Assembly: GCA_027028665.1 (NCBI GenBank)
Contig: JALVIU010000284.1
Coordinates: forward strand, 1-9,418
Direction of reading: 5' to 3'
DNA from: Candidatus Atribacteria bacterium
Lineage (GTDB): Bacteria > Atribacterota > JALVIU01
Length of the DNA: 9,418 bases
In this document: positions 1,833 through 8,523 of the stretch, piece by piece
Position numbering within the stretch: the stretch's first letter is position 1
How the letters are laid out: every line of letters starts with the position of its first letter
Translations under genes and position numbers: made by a program
Notes under the pieces: model-generated
The model's input: only the letters and a program-made list of their open reading frames with translations
The model's database searches: none
What the model was told of the DNA's origin: nothing

Positions 1833-1839
1833 ACCTCCT
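1833..1839 (-). promoter_or_regulatory. Ribosome binding site that fixes a TTG start
   Basis: On the minus strand AGGAGGT lies 5 bases before TTG at 1827-1825. It shares bases with the TAG stop (1840-1838) of the upstream permease gene. This spacing decides the unusual TTG start of the MalG-type permease and suggests translational coupling of the two permease subunits. Confidence 0.8.
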
Positions 1840-2728
1840 AATATTCTACTTTATTATACAAAAGTTTTATATATATTACAGCAAGCACCATGATAAAAAT
1901 AGATATGATAAATGATAGCGCAGAGCCCTTCCCAAGGTGGAGATAACTAAATGTCTCGAGATATGCCTGATATGCTATTACCTGGGTGCCATTTGCAGGA
2001 CCACCACGTGTAATTACATATATAATATCAAACACCCTGAAGGCCTCAACTGTCCTTATAACCAATGCCACAAGTATGGCAGGTGTCAAAAGTGGTAATG
2101 TCACACTAAAGAAACGCCTTACTGCCCCTGCACCATCTATCTTTGCAGCCTCATATAGAGAATCAGGGACAGTGGTAAGTGCTGCAAGCATAACAATTAT
2201 CACAAATGGTGTGGTATGCCATATATCTGCAATGATAACAAAGTTTAATGCAGTAAAAGGATCTGCAAGCCAGGCCTTATATTTAGAAATAATCCCCAAT
2301 CTGTACAGAAGACCATTTAGTGCACCATAATCTGCATTATAGATCCACTTCCATATAGCACCATTTACAATAGTAGGAACTGCCCACGGTAGGATAATGA
2401 GAGTTTTTAAAAGTCCCATCCCTTTTACTTTCTGCATAAGGAGAAGGGCTATTAATATACCAAATACAAGTTCTAATGCAACAGATACACTCATAAAATA
2501 GAGCGTCCTCTTTATAGAAGCCCAAAACTCTTCATCTTGCAAGAAGTAAAGGTAATTTTTAAAACCTATGAATGGTCTAAAATGAGGACGGGTAAGATAA
2601 TATCTATGCAAACTCAGATAAAACGTATCCACTATTGGATATGCAATAATAAGTATAAGAACTACCAGAGTAGGAATAAGAAGCCAATATGCAAATTTTA
2701 CCTCTTCCTTTCTAAAGACCTTCCACAT
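1838..2728 (-). CDS. Carbohydrate ABC transporter permease, MalF family
   Basis: This is the partner permease of the sugar importer: 296 residues, the common length for CUT1 MalF-type subunits that lack the large periplasmic loop of E. coli MalF. Membrane segments are visible near residues 13-37, 75-98, 107-128, 160-183, 213-235 and 268-290. The EAA loop is YEAAKIDGAGA at 192-202, followed by LP at 211-212, and is the docking site for the ATPase. RGGPANGTQV at 241-250 is another conserved family block. The ATG at 2728 has GGGG (2740-2743) 11 bases upstream, a weaker site than the binding-protein gene's AAGGAGGT. Between that gene and this one lies a strong stem-loop (2755-2774), so this gene is likely expressed at a lower level. 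Confidence 0.93.
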   Translation of the reverse strand: MWKVFRKEEVKFAYWLLIPTLVVLILIIAYPIVDTFYLSLHRYYLTRPHFRPFIGFKNYLYFLQDEEFWASIKRTLYFMSVSVALELVFGILIALLLMQKVKGMGLLKTLIILPWAVPTIVNGAIWKWIYNADYGALNGLLYRLGIISKYKAWLADPFTALNFVIIADIWHTTPFVIIVMLAALTTVPDSLYEAAKIDGAGAVRRFFSVTLPLLTPAILVALVIRTVEAFRVFDIIYVITRGGPANGTQVIAYQAYLETFSYLHLGKGSALSFIISIFIMVLAVIYIKLLYNKVEY

Positions 2729-2780: not shown

Positions 2781-4028
2781 TTAATATTGTATTGCTTTTA
2801 TTTTCTTTGCGGCTTCATCAAGTGCCTTCTTAGGCGAAAGTTTACCTGTAAATGCCTTCTGGAGTGCTACCTGAAGTATCTTGGATGCCTCAGGATAGTA
2901 TGGAACCTTTGGTCTTACATGTGCATATGGCCACTGTTTTGCAAACATAGGAAGTGTTACAGGTTGTAATTTTACAAGCTCTGGATCCTTTGCAAGGGAT
3001 TTCCATATTGGAAGCATGTGAGCAGAGTACCTCTTTTGCACATCCTTACTTGTAAGATAGAGAATAAACTTCCATGCTTCCTCTTTATGTTTTGAAGTGG
3101 CAGCTACAGAATATCCCATAGAACCATTTATTGTAGAACTTACTATATCTTCACTTCCCGATGGAACAAGAGACATCTTTACCTTTCCTGCTACTTTTGA
3201 TTCTTTAGGGTCATTTGCAAGGTCATACATATACAACCAGTTTAATGCATATGCAGCCTTACCCTGAGAGAATGTAAGTCTTACCTCTTCTTCTGTGGAA
3301 ACAGTGGATGCAGGATTGGATATCCCCTCTTTAAGTGTTTTAACCATCCAGGAGAGGGCATTTACACCATGTGCATCATTGAATACAGGATTATTATTCT
3401 CATCAAAAAATTTTCCACCAAATCCATAAAGAATGGCTACGAAATCACAAACAGAGCATTCATTCTGAGACCATGACCATATTATAGGATATTCTACAAT
3501 CCCTTTTGTTTTCATTACTTTTGCCTGTTGTTCAAGCTCCTGCCATGTTTTCGGAGGTGCAGAAAATCCCGCTTTTTTAAGCATCTCTTCATTATAATAG
3601 AAGTACTCTGCATCAAGTAACCATGGCATTCCCCATACCTTATTCTTATATGTTACTATTTCCCATCCTGCAGGTCCAATATCTTCTTTCATCTCTTTCG
3701 TAATTTTCGATGTTACATCCCAGAGCCATCCCGCTTCTGCAAATTCTGCATACCAGATATCATCTACCAGTATAGCATCATATGCAGCAGCACCACCTGC
3801 CATAGCAGTAGCAATCTTATCATGTAATGCATCATATCCCACAAAGGTAAGATTTACCTTAATATCTGGATTTTTTGCTTCAAATTCCTTTGCCACTTGT
3901 TTCATTTCATCAACTGTCATTGCCGCCTGCTGCATTCCTATTACGTTAATGGTAACAGGCCCTGCCCAGACAAGAGAGGAAAATACCAAAAGACCTAAAA
4001 CTAAACCCAAGATCAAAAACCTCTTCAT
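2781..4028 (-). CDS. Periplasmic sugar-binding protein of ABC importer (MalE/COG1653 type)
   Basis: This extracellular solute-binding protein (415 residues, usual for the family) captures the sugar and delivers it to the two permeases encoded downstream. Residues 1-22 form a signal peptide: the charged start MKR, a hydrophobic core and a VWA cleavage site before Gly23. There is no lipobox Cys, so the product should be soluble in a periplasm. The mature part has the bilobed pattern of the family: AAYDAILVDD at 81-90, KVWGMPWLLDAEYFYYNEEML at 130-150, and the C-terminal EEAWKFILYLTS at 316-327. Its only cysteines are Cys191 and Cys194 (ECSVCDF), a CxxC pair near the expected ligand cleft. Many exposed Trp and Tyr residues suit carbohydrate stacking. 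The ribosome binding site AAGGAGGT (4036-4043) is the best in the operon. The ligand is unknown. Confidence 0.93.
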   Translation of the reverse strand: MKRFLILGLVLGLLVFSSLVWAGPVTINVIGMQQAAMTVDEMKQVAKEFEAKNPDIKVNLTFVGYDALHDKIATAMAGGAAAYDAILVDDIWYAEFAEAGWLWDVTSKITKEMKEDIGPAGWEIVTYKNKVWGMPWLLDAEYFYYNEEMLKKAGFSAPPKTWQELEQQAKVMKTKGIVEYPIIWSWSQNECSVCDFVAILYGFGGKFFDENNNPVFNDAHGVNALSWMVKTLKEGISNPASTVSTEEEVRLTFSQGKAAYALNWLYMYDLANDPKESKVAGKVKMSLVPSGSEDIVSSTINGSMGYSVAATSKHKEEAWKFILYLTSKDVQKRYSAHMLPIWKSLAKDPELVKLQPVTLPMFAKQWPYAHVRPKVPYYPEASKILQVALQKAFTGKLSPKKALDEAAKKIKAIQY

Positions 4029-5098: not shown

Positions 5099-6223
5099 TT
5101 AAATTTTCAGGATACTCTTTTGAACAAAGAAAAGTGCACCTATGGCCACACCAAATTCCTTAATCTTTCCCCTTTCAAATCTAACACCTTCAAGTATTTC
5201 TGGAAAAACAATTTTCTTTATAACGGGCAACATATAGGCCATGATTCTATCATATTGGTTATATCCTATACCTCCTTTAACTATAACCACTTCTGGATTT
5301 AAAAGATAAATTATATCAGATAAAGCAACCCCTATATGCTCGATTCCTTTCTTTATAATACTTGCTACATCCTTTCTTTCTTCCATTAGTTCAAAGCCTT
5401 TTTTTATATCTTGAATTCCTAGTACGCTAAATTTTTTCTCCAGAGAGGCACCTGAGAACCATTCCTCAAGGGGGCCAAAAGATAAGGGAAAAAACTTCTT
5501 ATCGATACTCCAATCGGTAATTATATTACCTATCTCTCCAGCAGTGCCTCTACTACCCCTATAGATCTTCTTCTCTATTATGATACCAGAACCAATACCT
5601 GTTCCTATAGATACAAGAAATATATTTTTATAGTCTCTTCCTGTTCCTATTCTGCTTTCTGCATATGCATCAAGAGTTACATCATTTTCTATATATACAG
5701 GAAGCCCAAATTTATCCTCTAAAAATACCTTAAGGTTCACATTTCTAAGCCCAAATGCAGGCATATATTTGACTACGCCCAGATCTGGCTCTACAGTCCC
5801 TGGAACCCCTATACCTATTCCTATTATATTTTTGAGGAATTTCTCCTTTAGCTTAGCTACTGTCTTTGTTAAAAGTCCTTCAAGTTCTTTTTGTGTAGTA
5901 ATGCCTCTTGTAGAATATTTCAAACTCCTCACAATATTACCATCAAGATCTCCTATTATCCCTTCAAGCTTGGTACCACCAATGTCGATACCAATTACAT
6001 ACATACAATCTGGAACAAAAGAGAGGCCTATGCGTCTTCTCCCAAATTTTTTAGATGTATGATTCTCTTTGTTTTCCCTGACAAAGCCAAGCTCTATTAA
6101 TTTCTTTATATGAACAGATACAACAGGTTTACTAAGTTTAAGTCTCTCTACTATTTCGATGCGGGATATAGACTTATTTTCCCTTATTATATTTAAAATA
6201 CGTCTTTCAGTATTATTAAGCAT
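5099..6223 (-). CDS. ROK-family transcriptional regulator (NagC/XylR type) lacking the zinc Cys motif
   Basis: The 374-residue length and architecture match ROK repressors. Residues 5-48 form a winged helix-turn-helix (SRIEIVERLKLSKPVVSVHI at 20-39 holds the recognition helix). A basic linker GRRR follows at 61-64, then an actin-like sugar-kinase fold. ATP and phosphate motifs are kept: GIDIGGTK at 78-85 and SIGTGIGSG at 205-213. The catalytic Asp of ROK kinases corresponds to Asp181 in IENDV. The usual CxCGxxGCxE zinc cluster is absent: the segment before GPLEEWFSG (250-258) has no Cys, and the His of the EIGH motif is Asn233. It probably represses its own operon at the palindrome 6255-6280 and is released by a sugar or phosphosugar. 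First gene of the operon; the ribosome binding site is weak (GAGAAGAG). Confidence 0.9.
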   Translation of the reverse strand: MLNNTERRILNIIRENKSISRIEIVERLKLSKPVVSVHIKKLIELGFVRENKENHTSKKFGRRRIGLSFVPDCMYVIGIDIGGTKLEGIIGDLDGNIVRSLKYSTRGITTQKELEGLLTKTVAKLKEKFLKNIIGIGIGVPGTVEPDLGVVKYMPAFGLRNVNLKVFLEDKFGLPVYIENDVTLDAYAESRIGTGRDYKNIFLVSIGTGIGSGIIIEKKIYRGSRGTAGEIGNIITDWSIDKKFFPLSFGPLEEWFSGASLEKKFSVLGIQDIKKGFELMEERKDVASIIKKGIEHIGVALSDIIYLLNPEVVIVKGGIGYNQYDRIMAYMLPVIKKIVFPEILEGVRFERGKIKEFGVAIGALFFVQKSILKI

Positions 6224-6240: not shown

Positions 6241-6261
6241 GTATAAATTATGTATAAATTA
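6241..6261. repeat. Tandem 10-bp direct repeat in the sugar-operon leader
   Basis: GTATAAATTA occurs at 6241-6250 and again at 6252-6261, one helical turn (11 bp) apart. It lies between the 26-bp operator and the ROK start codon, and the second copy overlaps the operator edge. It may add contacts for a regulator, or be chance in AT-rich DNA. Confidence 0.45.
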
Positions 6262-6280
6262 GTTTATATAAACTAATTTA
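6255..6280. promoter_or_regulatory. Perfect 26-bp palindromic operator of the sugar operon
   Basis: Every one of the 13 base pairs is symmetric about 6267/6268; the core is TTAGTTTATATAAACTAA (6259-6276). It starts directly after the -10 box (6281-6286) and covers the expected transcription start, the standard place for a repressor site. The half site TTAGTTT/AAACTAA is the one known for Bacillus XylR, a ROK repressor, but here the halves are 4 bp apart instead of 11. The first gene downstream encodes a ROK regulator, so autoregulation is the natural reading. Confidence 0.8.
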
Positions 6281-7028: not shown

Positions 7029-8096
7029 TTATATATAGTATATATAAAGATATAAAAGTAATGTAGATATACCAAGAAATGGAATAGAATAAAGATGAAA
7101 CCTTTTTATAGAAACAATTCCCAACCTAATACCTATAAGATTTGCCAGGGAAGAGATCATAGTTCCATTACCTGCCACATTTACACCATATAAAAGCTGA
7201 GTATAAGAAGTTGTATAATGGGAAAATAAAAGAGCTGTTGGTACATTACTTATAACCTGAGATAATAATATTGAGGAAATAAAAATATTCCTTATAGATG
7301 AAAGCATTCCATCTATTACTCTAATCTCTTTTACCCCTCCTATGAGAATAAAAAGAAAAACGAATATAAGCAAGAGATTTAAGTTTATCCCATAGTAAAT
7401 GATTCTTTTATTTATTATTAAATAAGTAATACCTGTAATAATCAATGCCCATATTTGAAATTTATAGTTTATCAAAAAAATAGATGTGAAAAACAAAAAA
7501 ATAGATACTATAAAAAGAATGCGATTTTTTACAATTGGGACAAATGGCTTTATTTTTATTTCTGTTTTTTTAAAAGAAAAATAAATAACTATAATTAGCA
7601 AAGTAGCATTTATAATTTCAAATGGAACCATTTTCCATACAAAGTCAAAAAAACTCATAGAAAATGACTGATAAATATAGATATTTTGAGGATTTCCTAT
7701 GGGAAAGAGAGAGGACCCAATGTTTGCAGCCCATATTTCAAATATAATAAGCTTTTCTATATCTAAGTCAATCCTTTTTGAAATGGATAAGGTAATTGGT
7801 ATTATAAGAAACAAAGACACATCATTTGTAATAAATGGGGAAATTAAAAGTTCTATAAATATAAGTGAAAAAGCAATCCCTTTCTCTGTCTTTACCCTAT
7901 TTATAAATTTATCTGTAACCTGATTTAGATACCCAGAAAATTCAATTCCTTTGGTGATGAGCATAAAAGTGGAAAGAACTATTAGGGTATTATATTCTAT
8001 AAATAAGGGTACTTCCCTCAATATAGAAGGTTTCCATATAACAAATATAATTAGAAGAATAGTAAGGATTAGAAGAAAAGGATCTTTTTTAAACAT
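7029..8096 (-). CDS. ArsB/NhaD (ion transporter superfamily) membrane permease, YbiR-like
   Basis: The 355-residue protein has about ten to eleven hydrophobic membrane segments and short loops. Family motifs are TNDVSLFLIIPIT at 90-102, NIGSSLFPIGNPQN at 125-138 in the first half, and SQVISNVPTALL at 279-290 with GVNVAGNGTMISSLANLIG at 304-322 in the second half. These pairs of Asn/Pro/Gly-rich re-entrant loops define the ArsB/NhaD/CitT superfamily of arsenite, sodium-proton or anion carriers; the sequence is closest in feel to YbiR. It is shorter than ArsB (about 430), as YbiR-like members are. No arsR or arsenate reductase lies nearby, so arsenic resistance is not supported. It overlaps the upstream gene by 8 bases and its GAGG lies inside that gene, so they are translationally coupled. 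Substrate unknown. Confidence 0.82.
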   Translation of the reverse strand: MFKKDPFLLILTILLIIFVIWKPSILREVPLFIEYNTLIVLSTFMLITKGIEFSGYLNQVTDKFINRVKTEKGIAFSLIFIELLISPFITNDVSLFLIIPITLSISKRIDLDIEKLIIFEIWAANIGSSLFPIGNPQNIYIYQSFSMSFFDFVWKMVPFEIINATLLIIVIYFSFKKTEIKIKPFVPIVKNRILFIVSIFLFFTSIFLINYKFQIWALIITGITYLIINKRIIYYGINLNLLLIFVFLFILIGGVKEIRVIDGMLSSIRNIFISSILLSQVISNVPTALLFSHYTTSYTQLLYGVNVAGNGTMISSLANLIGIRLGIVSIKRFHLYSIPFLGISTLLLYLYIYYI

Positions 8097-8523
8097 TCAT
8101 CCTCATCTCACTCGTTGCATGGTAATCTGGTACAAGGGCACGTCCATCTGCAGAAACCCTAATATGGGCAATTATAAGCTTCTTAAATGCACAAGGCACT
8201 ACCCAGGCATCTTCTGGTTCTCTAAACTCCACCCCTTCAAGTACCATAAGATCTTTTAAGGAGTTCTCTACCTCTTCTTTTATCTTTTGTAAATCTATTA
8301 AAAGCTCAGATCCTCCCATTACTCCAGGAATTCCCTTTGGAAGAACAGACCAGGCTATAGGGTCAAAATGTATAAGATCAAGTACAAAACCATTATACAT
8401 AAGAGGTATTTTTACCTCTACTCTTCCATGTGGATGGGCCCTTTTGAAAGGATTACCTATAAAGAAGTCACCTTTTGCTTTTTTCACAAGCTCTATTGCA
8501 AGAGTAGGCTCTTTTTCCCACAT
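8089..8523 (-). CDS. Protein of unknown function, 144 residues
   Basis: I do not recognise this family. The gene looks real: a near-consensus promoter (8548-8577), a strong ribosome binding site AAAGGAGG just upstream of ATG, codon use like its neighbours, and an 8-base overlap with the transporter gene. No signal peptide or membrane segment is visible, so it should be cytoplasmic. The centre has candidate polar or metal-ligand residues: His30 and His32 (KRAHPHGR), His52 and Asp54 (LIHFDPIAW), Cys111 (VVPCAF), His120 and His135. Short Gly/Pro-rich turns (LPKGIPGVMGG, 61-71) and a helical segment (75-93) suggest a compact alpha/beta fold. Coupling to an ion transporter suggests a related role, but no function can be given. 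Confidence 0.8.
   Translation of the reverse strand: MWEKEPTLAIELVKKAKGDFFIGNPFKRAHPHGRVEVKIPLMYNGFVLDLIHFDPIAWSVLPKGIPGVMGGSELLIDLQKIKEEVENSLKDLMVLEGVEFREPEDAWVVPCAFKKLIIAHIRVSADGRALVPDYHATSEMRMNV

What the first reader, a model, noticed from the sequence alone, without database searches (positions are those of the whole stretch)
5099..6223. DNA-binding ROK protein without the zinc cluster but with kinase residues: regulator, kinase or both?
Seen: the Cys cluster and EIGH His are missing (no Cys in 231-258; Asn233), yet DIGGTK (80-85), SIGTGIGSG (205-213) and the catalytic-position Asp181 remain, fused to an HTH. Known: ROK repressors such as NagC, Mlc and XylR normally keep the zinc motif for structure and for coupling sugar binding to DNA release. 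Inferred: ABC importers deliver unphosphorylated sugar, the SIS enzyme needs a phosphosugar, and no other kinase is in the operon, so this protein could phosphorylate the sugar as well as sense it.
Basis: partly seen in the sequence, partly recalled or inferred. Interest (0 to 1): 0.6.

Follow-up and report, generated by a model that had tools for sequence, protein, structure and literature searches.

The report
Zinc-less sugar-sensing repressor with kinase residues
This gene encodes a DNA-binding switch for a sugar-uptake operon whose sensing part still has the residues a sugar kinase needs but lacks the usual zinc site; it is most likely an ordinary repressor, and whether it also phosphorylates a sugar is an open, testable question.

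Summary
The sequence facts are right: a 374-aa winged-HTH + ROK protein (6223-5099, minus strand) with DIGGTK 80-85, N180-D181, SIGTGIGSG 205-213, EIGN in place of EIGH, and no Cys cluster. The AlphaFold2 model (mean pLDDT 93.8) matches both ROK repressors and ROK kinases. Zinc loss is not unusual: 21 of 71 sampled HTH-ROK proteins lack the cluster, and zinc-less ROK kinases have solved structures (FnNanK, the closest in sequence). What is rare is the complete DxGxT + Asp181 + Thr208 set in an HTH protein: 0 of 57 in this phylum, 3 of 14 others. One of those, in Rhizobium, also lacks zinc and the His and sits among peptide-uptake genes, so the combination is neither unique nor proof of kinase activity. 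The 26-bp palindrome before the gene has the TTAGTTT/AAACTAA arms of Bacillus XylR-type operators and is unique in the genome. The genome carries a NagK-like kinase, NagA and eight PfkB matches, none found under this operator. Best reading: a local auto-regulating ROK repressor. The dual repressor-kinase idea is not excluded (about 0.15-0.2), but nothing here shows it.

The parts
5099..6223 (-). HTH-ROK protein, 374 aa, first gene of the operon
   Evidence: ORF; PF00480 3.6e-46 and PF13412 4.2e-12; AlphaFold2 pLDDT 93.8, pTM 0.91
6077..6220 (-). winged helix-turn-helix, residues 2-49
   Evidence: Pfam HTH_24 residues 2-49; helices 4-15, 21-28, 32-45 in the model
5969..5986 (-). DIGGTK, residues 80-85: phosphate/Mg motif DxGxT of ROK kinases
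   Evidence: identical to E. coli NagK and NanK at this place, absent in NagC and Mlc
5681..5686 (-). Asn180-Asp181: sugar-binding Asn and position of the catalytic base
   Evidence: aligned with FnNanK Asn106-Asp107
5585..5611 (-). SIGTGIGSG, residues 205-213: second phosphate loop (Thr208)
   Evidence: Thr at this place in all sampled kinases, weighted frequency 0.16 in HTH-ROKs
5525..5536 (-). EIGN, residues 230-233: Glu kept, zinc/sugar His replaced by Asn
5474..5524 (-). loop 234-250 in place of the CxCGxxGC zinc loop; low confidence in the model
   Evidence: no Cys; pLDDT 59 for residues 241-250
5465..5476 (-). GPLE, residues 250-253: remnant of GCLE with the sugar-binding Glu253
   Evidence: alignment
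6255..6280 (.). 26-bp perfect palindrome TAAATTAGTTTATATAAACTAATTTA, probable operator; arms TTAGTTT/AAACTAA as between Bacillus xylA and xylR
   Evidence: unique in the genome
4068..5090 (-). SIS-domain sugar-phosphate isomerase/deaminase-like enzyme
   Evidence: PF01380; GlmS isomerase part 141 bits, below cut-off
2781..4028 (-). ABC transporter sugar-binding protein
   Evidence: PF01547; 45-47% identical orthologues in the phylum
1838..2728 (-). ABC permease 1
   Evidence: PF00528
976..1827 (-). ABC permease 2; no ATPase gene in the operon
   Evidence: PF00528

Best explanation
The protein is a local, auto-regulating ROK-family transcriptional repressor. As a dimer it binds the palindrome at 6255-6280, about 32 bp upstream of its own start codon, and holds down its own gene, the SIS enzyme and the sugar importer; when the imported sugar or its phosphate enters the ROK pocket the domain closes and the protein leaves the DNA. 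The pocket keeps Asn180, Asp181, Glu230, Glu253 and an intact ATP-phosphate/Mg site, so it may bind ATP as well as sugar; the zinc-bound loop is replaced by a flexible cysteine-free loop, which probably alters sugar specificity and the way closing is passed to the HTH. Shown: sequence, predicted fold, operator-like palindrome, operon order. Inferred: DNA binding, the ligand, the direction of regulation.
For: HTH + ROK in one ORF. The model aligns over its full length with the operator-bound ROK repressor Lmo0178 (5f7q, Z 38.8, rmsd 2.4 over 366 residues) and with Mlc and a Mlc homologue. The palindrome has exactly the TTAGTTT/AAACTAA arms of two xylA-xylR intergenic regions, and among 248 loci the pattern with 2-14 nt between the arms occurs only there and in the window; none in shuffles of the window. 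RokB, CysR, Mlc, NagC, RafR and Thermotogae ROK regulators have inverted-repeat sites of similar organisation (PMC4856308). Thermotoga ChiR, a ROK regulator, controls a chitobiose transporter plus nagAB operon and answers to chitobiose (PMC3750489).
Against: No binding, expression or ligand data. The spacing between the arms is 4 nt here and 11 nt in the Bacillus sites, so the geometry is not the same. Retention of all catalytic residues is unusual for a plain repressor (0 of 57 other HTH-ROKs in the phylum). No orthologous operon was found, so the operator could not be tested by conservation.
Confidence: 0.72

Rival explanations
1. Bifunctional repressor-kinase: the ROK domain phosphorylates the imported (amino)sugar with ATP and feeds the SIS enzyme, and the same domain gates DNA binding.
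For: All residues shown essential or important by mutagenesis in PsNagK (D6, T10, T132, D105; PMC10031466) are present as D80, T84, T208, D181. The best-matching solved ROK domain by sequence is FnNanK, itself zinc-less (29% identity, rmsd 2.2). At 12 columns that tell kinases from HTH-ROKs the protein matches the kinase residue at 8 (HTH median 3; lowest kinase 8, kinase median 11). Nearest rows by path in a tree built without the DIGGTK and zinc-loop columns are stand-alone kinases, and joining it to the kinases is not rejected (p-AU 0.45). No kinase gene in the operon; distant SIS homologues in relatives often sit beside one.
Against: The sugar-contacting His is Asn, whereas all 51 sampled stand-alone kinases have His and the Cys cluster; Lys316 replaces the first Gly of the GGG stretch. 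A Rhizobium HTH-ROK with the same set lies among peptide-uptake genes. Other kinases exist in the genome. The 12 columns include the motif columns themselves, so that score is partly circular.
Confidence: 0.17
2. Repressor in transition: ATP and sugar are bound but catalysis is lost; ATP occupancy is a second signal (energy state). This is a refinement of the best explanation rather than its opposite.
For: Intact phosphate site with an altered sugar pocket; HTH-ROKs from Chloroflexota and Actinomycetota keep DxGAT + Asp + Thr with zinc (L234, L239), and a Rhizobium one keeps DIGGTK without zinc.
Against: No nucleotide-binding data; none of the papers read reports a ROK repressor that uses ATP as a signal.
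Confidence: 0.25
3. Decayed or mis-assembled gene, no function.
For: Single fragmented genome assembly, no orthologue found.
Against: Open frame, first in a tight operon, confident full-length model, perfect palindrome upstream.
Confidence: 0.03

Closest known systems
XylR-type ROK repressors (Bacillus/Priestia xylA-xylR)
   Same: HTH + ROK layout; palindrome arms TTAGTTT/AAACTAA in the xylA-xylR gap
   Different: arms 11 nt apart instead of 4; these proteins have DIGVDY/DVGVDY, ENE instead of END, and a Cys cluster
Lmo0178 (5f7p/q/r), Mlc and NagC repressors
   Same: full-length fold, Z 35-39 for Lmo0178 and Mlc; 148 bits to the NagC model
   Different: they lack DxGGT and keep the ExGH His and the Cys cluster; NagC model cut-off 650 not reached
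Fusobacterium nucleatum NanK (5nck)
   Same: zinc-less ROK domain with DIGGT, END and GTGIG; 29% identity, rmsd 2.2 over 285 residues (PMC5458393)
   Different: no HTH; keeps the His of ExGH
MecR2 of S. aureus (4ija, XylR homologue)
   Same: HTH-ROK without the Cys cluster, EIGK in place of EIGH
   Different: DxGGT and the catalytic Asp are lost; an anti-repressor that interacts with MecI (PMC3406092)
Rhizobium jaguaris HTH-ROK (L232, NZ_CP032695 1794574-1795773)
   Same: HTH + DIGGTK + ND + GTGIG, His of ExGH lost (Thr), no Cys cluster
   Different: 31.6% identical; next to gamma-glutamyltransferase-like and peptide ABC transporter genes

Membership tests
ROK family (PF00480) | Pfam ROK domain over the curated cut-off | tested here: met
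   158.4 bits against 22.9
ROK family (signature motifs listed in PMC5458393) | DxGxT nucleotide motif | tested here: met
   DIGGTK 80-85
ROK family (signature motifs listed in PMC5458393) | catalytic Asp in the active-site loop | tested here: met
   Asp181
ROK family (signature motifs listed in PMC5458393) | ExGH sugar motif | tested here: not met
   EIGN: Glu230 kept, His is Asn233
ROK family (signature motifs listed in PMC5458393) | CxCGxxGCx(E/D) zinc motif | tested here: not met
   no Cys; Glu253 kept. Accepted ROK members FnNanK (PMC5458393) and MecR2 also lack it
ROK sugar kinase (functional class) | ATP-dependent sugar phosphorylation | not testable with these tools
   needs an enzyme assay
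ROK sugar kinase (functional class) | reaches a named kinase model (NagK, NanK, glucokinase, AlsK, Mak, BglK) | tested here: not met
   best 116 bits against cut-off 260 for ROK glucokinase; others further below
ROK transcriptional regulator | N-terminal helix-turn-helix fused to ROK | tested here: met
ROK transcriptional regulator | inverted-repeat site at the target promoter | tested here: met
   26-bp perfect palindrome 6255-6280 with XylR-type arms; binding itself not tested
NagC / Mlc equivalogs | curated score cut-off | tested here: not met
   148.5 of 650 and 98.3 of 530 bits

The most novel reading that the evidence does not exclude
One protein is both the repressor of the operon and the sugar kinase of its pathway, so that substrate turnover in the ROK site directly sets DNA binding; the zinc-less pocket is the adaptation that lets both jobs share one site.
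Probability: 0.15. Interest if true: 0.65.

Novelty: new member of a known kind. Interest (0 to 1): 0.33.

Why it matters
ROK repressors are thought to have arisen from sugar kinases that gained a DNA-binding domain (PMC12696579). A repressor that still has every catalytic residue would be a natural test case for whether that change passed through a stage with both functions, and for what the zinc site is needed for.

Tried and rejected
Zinc loss as a special mark of dual function: rejected, 21 of 71 HTH-ROKs lack it. L181 as a second HTH protein with DIGGTK: rejected, its N-terminal extension is read-through upstream of a stand-alone kinase. A kinase gene elsewhere under the same operator: the 22-mer with up to 3 mismatches and the paired half-site pattern occur only in the window; an 18-mer match with 2 mismatches lies inside an ORF, and a 3-mismatch match on the contig of the NagK-like gene lies between two other, convergent genes, not upstream of the kinase. 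Placing the ROK domain by phylogeny: unresolved, long branch, no supported neighbour; joining to kinases not rejected; a second test did not finish. Transporter-NagA link in G004 (L073): the transporter and the NagA-SIS-ROK genes are convergent, and other transporter orthologues stand without them, so it is no proof of a GlcNAc substrate. The search for related loci in genome contigs gave one distant kinase only. Papers on a ROK protein with both functions: none found in the open library; the 2013 Thermotogae ROK paper and the S. aureus NanK paper are not held.

Full report
Observation. The ORF at 6223-5099 (minus) encodes 374 aa. DIGGTK is 80-85, SIGTGIGSG 205-213, the IEND motif places Asn180-Asp181, and GEIGN gives Glu230 and Asn233; the only Cys is Cys73. 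Pfam finds ROK at 76-369 and a winged HTH at 2-49.

Fold. From an alignment of 69 ROK proteins AlphaFold2 gave mean pLDDT 93.8 and pTM 0.91; only the inter-domain linker and residues 241-250, where the zinc loop would be, are weak. Full-length matches are the ROK repressor Lmo0178 bound to operator (Z 38.8, rmsd 2.4, 366 residues), a Mlc homologue and others; the ROK domain also matches kinases with rmsd 2.2-2.7, including human ManNAc kinase with ManNAc and ADP. The fold therefore does not separate repressor from kinase. By sequence the best solved match of the ROK domain is F. nucleatum NanK, which also has no zinc site although its active-site features are conserved (PMC5458393).

Active-site inventory. 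In P. shigelloides NagK, D105N and D6N/A abolish activity and T10V and T132V impair it; His157 also binds zinc (PMC10031466). The counterparts here are Asp181, Asp80, Thr84 and Thr208 (all kept) and Asn233 (changed). Glu230 and Glu253, counterparts of human ManNAc kinase Glu566 and Glu588, are kept. So everything tested there as essential for the chemistry is present, and the sugar/zinc His and the three Cys are gone.

How unusual is it? I collected ROK proteins from up to 50 genomes of the same phylum, E. coli NagC, Mlc, NagK, NanK and Mak and 12 HTH-ROK proteins of other bacteria from plasmid records. The sample leans towards sequences similar to the query. Of 71 HTH-ROK proteins besides the query, 21 lack the Cys cluster, so zinc loss is common; the other HTH-ROK protein of the same genome (contig C55) has lost it too. 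Only four have DxGxT and only three have DxGxT + Asp181 + Thr208: L232 (Rhizobium; also no zinc, His to Thr), L234 (Chloroflexota, zinc motif kept) and L239 (Actinomycetota, zinc motif kept); none of the 57 from this phylum does. All 51 stand-alone kinases sampled have the His and the Cys cluster. The solved HTH-ROK structures 4ija, 2hoe and 5f7r also lack DxGGT. The query thus combines a kinase-like phosphate site and base with loss of zinc and His.

A counter-example. The Rhizobium protein L232 has the same combination and lies between genes of an oligopeptide-type ABC transporter and a gamma-glutamyltransferase-like gene (gene names by my reading of the sequences, as the record has no annotation there). 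Nothing in that immediate neighbourhood asks for a sugar kinase. Retained catalytic residues in an HTH-ROK are therefore weak evidence for kinase activity.

Evolution. In a maximum-likelihood tree of ROK domains built without the DIGGTK and zinc-loop columns, the query is a long unsupported branch; its nearest rows by path are stand-alone kinases (at most 30% identity), and placing it with the kinases is not rejected (p-AU 0.45). It may be a relatively direct kinase-to-regulator conversion, but the data do not decide.

Operon and pathway. Gene order on the minus strand is ROK, SIS enzyme, sugar-binding protein, two permeases, with gaps of about 8-52 bp and no ATPase or kinase gene. The SIS protein resembles the GlmS isomerase part and GlmD, far below every curated cut-off, so its substrate is not settled. 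In relatives, distant SIS homologues often sit beside a PfkB-like kinase, or beside a ROK kinase and a NagA-like gene, whereas transporter orthologues mostly stand alone. In the query's own genome there is no stand-alone ROK kinase, but there is a BadF/NagK-like kinase on C206, a NagA over cut-off on C385, a second SIS enzyme nearer to GlmD on C257, and eight PfkB matches, some of them fragments at contig ends. A kinase step could therefore be served from elsewhere. The genome is about 90% complete in 413 contigs, so absences are soft.

Operator. Positions 6255-6280 form a perfect 26-bp palindrome, about 32 bp upstream of the start codon. By hand estimate, a perfect 26-bp palindrome in this 298-bp A+T-rich gap is expected in roughly 1 of 10,000 cases. 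Its arms TTAGTTT/AAACTAA are those in the xylA-xylR gaps of Priestia megaterium and Bacillus velezensis, which read TTAGTTT-11 nt-AAACTAA; here the spacer is 4 nt. An A. bescii XylR operator has GTTTGTTT...AAATAAAC arms (PMC12285236). The site is unique in the genome at up to 3 mismatches over 22 bp and as a half-site pair; the near-matches over 18 bp that I looked at lie within a gene or in a convergent gap. This argues for a purely local regulator.

Conclusion. The best-supported reading is a local ROK repressor whose pocket probably still binds ATP and sugar. Whether it catalyses phosphoryl transfer cannot be decided from sequence; the altered His, the Rhizobium counter-example and the presence of other kinases keep the probability near 0.15-0.2. 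I did not have model coordinates, so pocket distances were not measured.

Noticed in passing
L061, L063-L069, L071, L075 (relatives): In about ten genomes of the phylum a SIS enzyme is followed by a PfkB-like kinase ('GNxSLDLxLGxI') and, a little further, a protein of about 548 aa that looks UbiB/AarF-like, in several cases just downstream of parA-parB-like genes; the cluster is conserved and its role is not obvious.
   Followed up: no
G000:C55 4736-5851 (L079): The only other HTH-ROK protein of the window's genome also lacks the Cys cluster (EVGH kept, short loop), like a group of phylum relatives next to ribose-type transporter genes (L005, L006, L133, L134), with which it groups in the tree.
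   Followed up: partly
window 8089-8523, minus: 144-aa ORF without any Pfam match at E 0.01, between a CitMHS-type transporter gene and a glycosyltransferase-28-like gene.
   Followed up: no
L023, L025, L156, L158, L177, L182: A conserved group of HTH-ROK proteins with DLGGEN, END, RTGIG and ExGY and no zinc cluster: another partly kinase-like, zinc-less regulator type, with Tyr where L. monocytogenes 4htl also has Tyr (PMC5458393).
   Followed up: partly
L120, L122, L123, L073: Orthologues of the window's transporter are often divergent from a 727-729-aa gene that begins like a membrane-bound sensor or chemoreceptor (TLKGKL...FLLFALVPFF).
   Followed up: no
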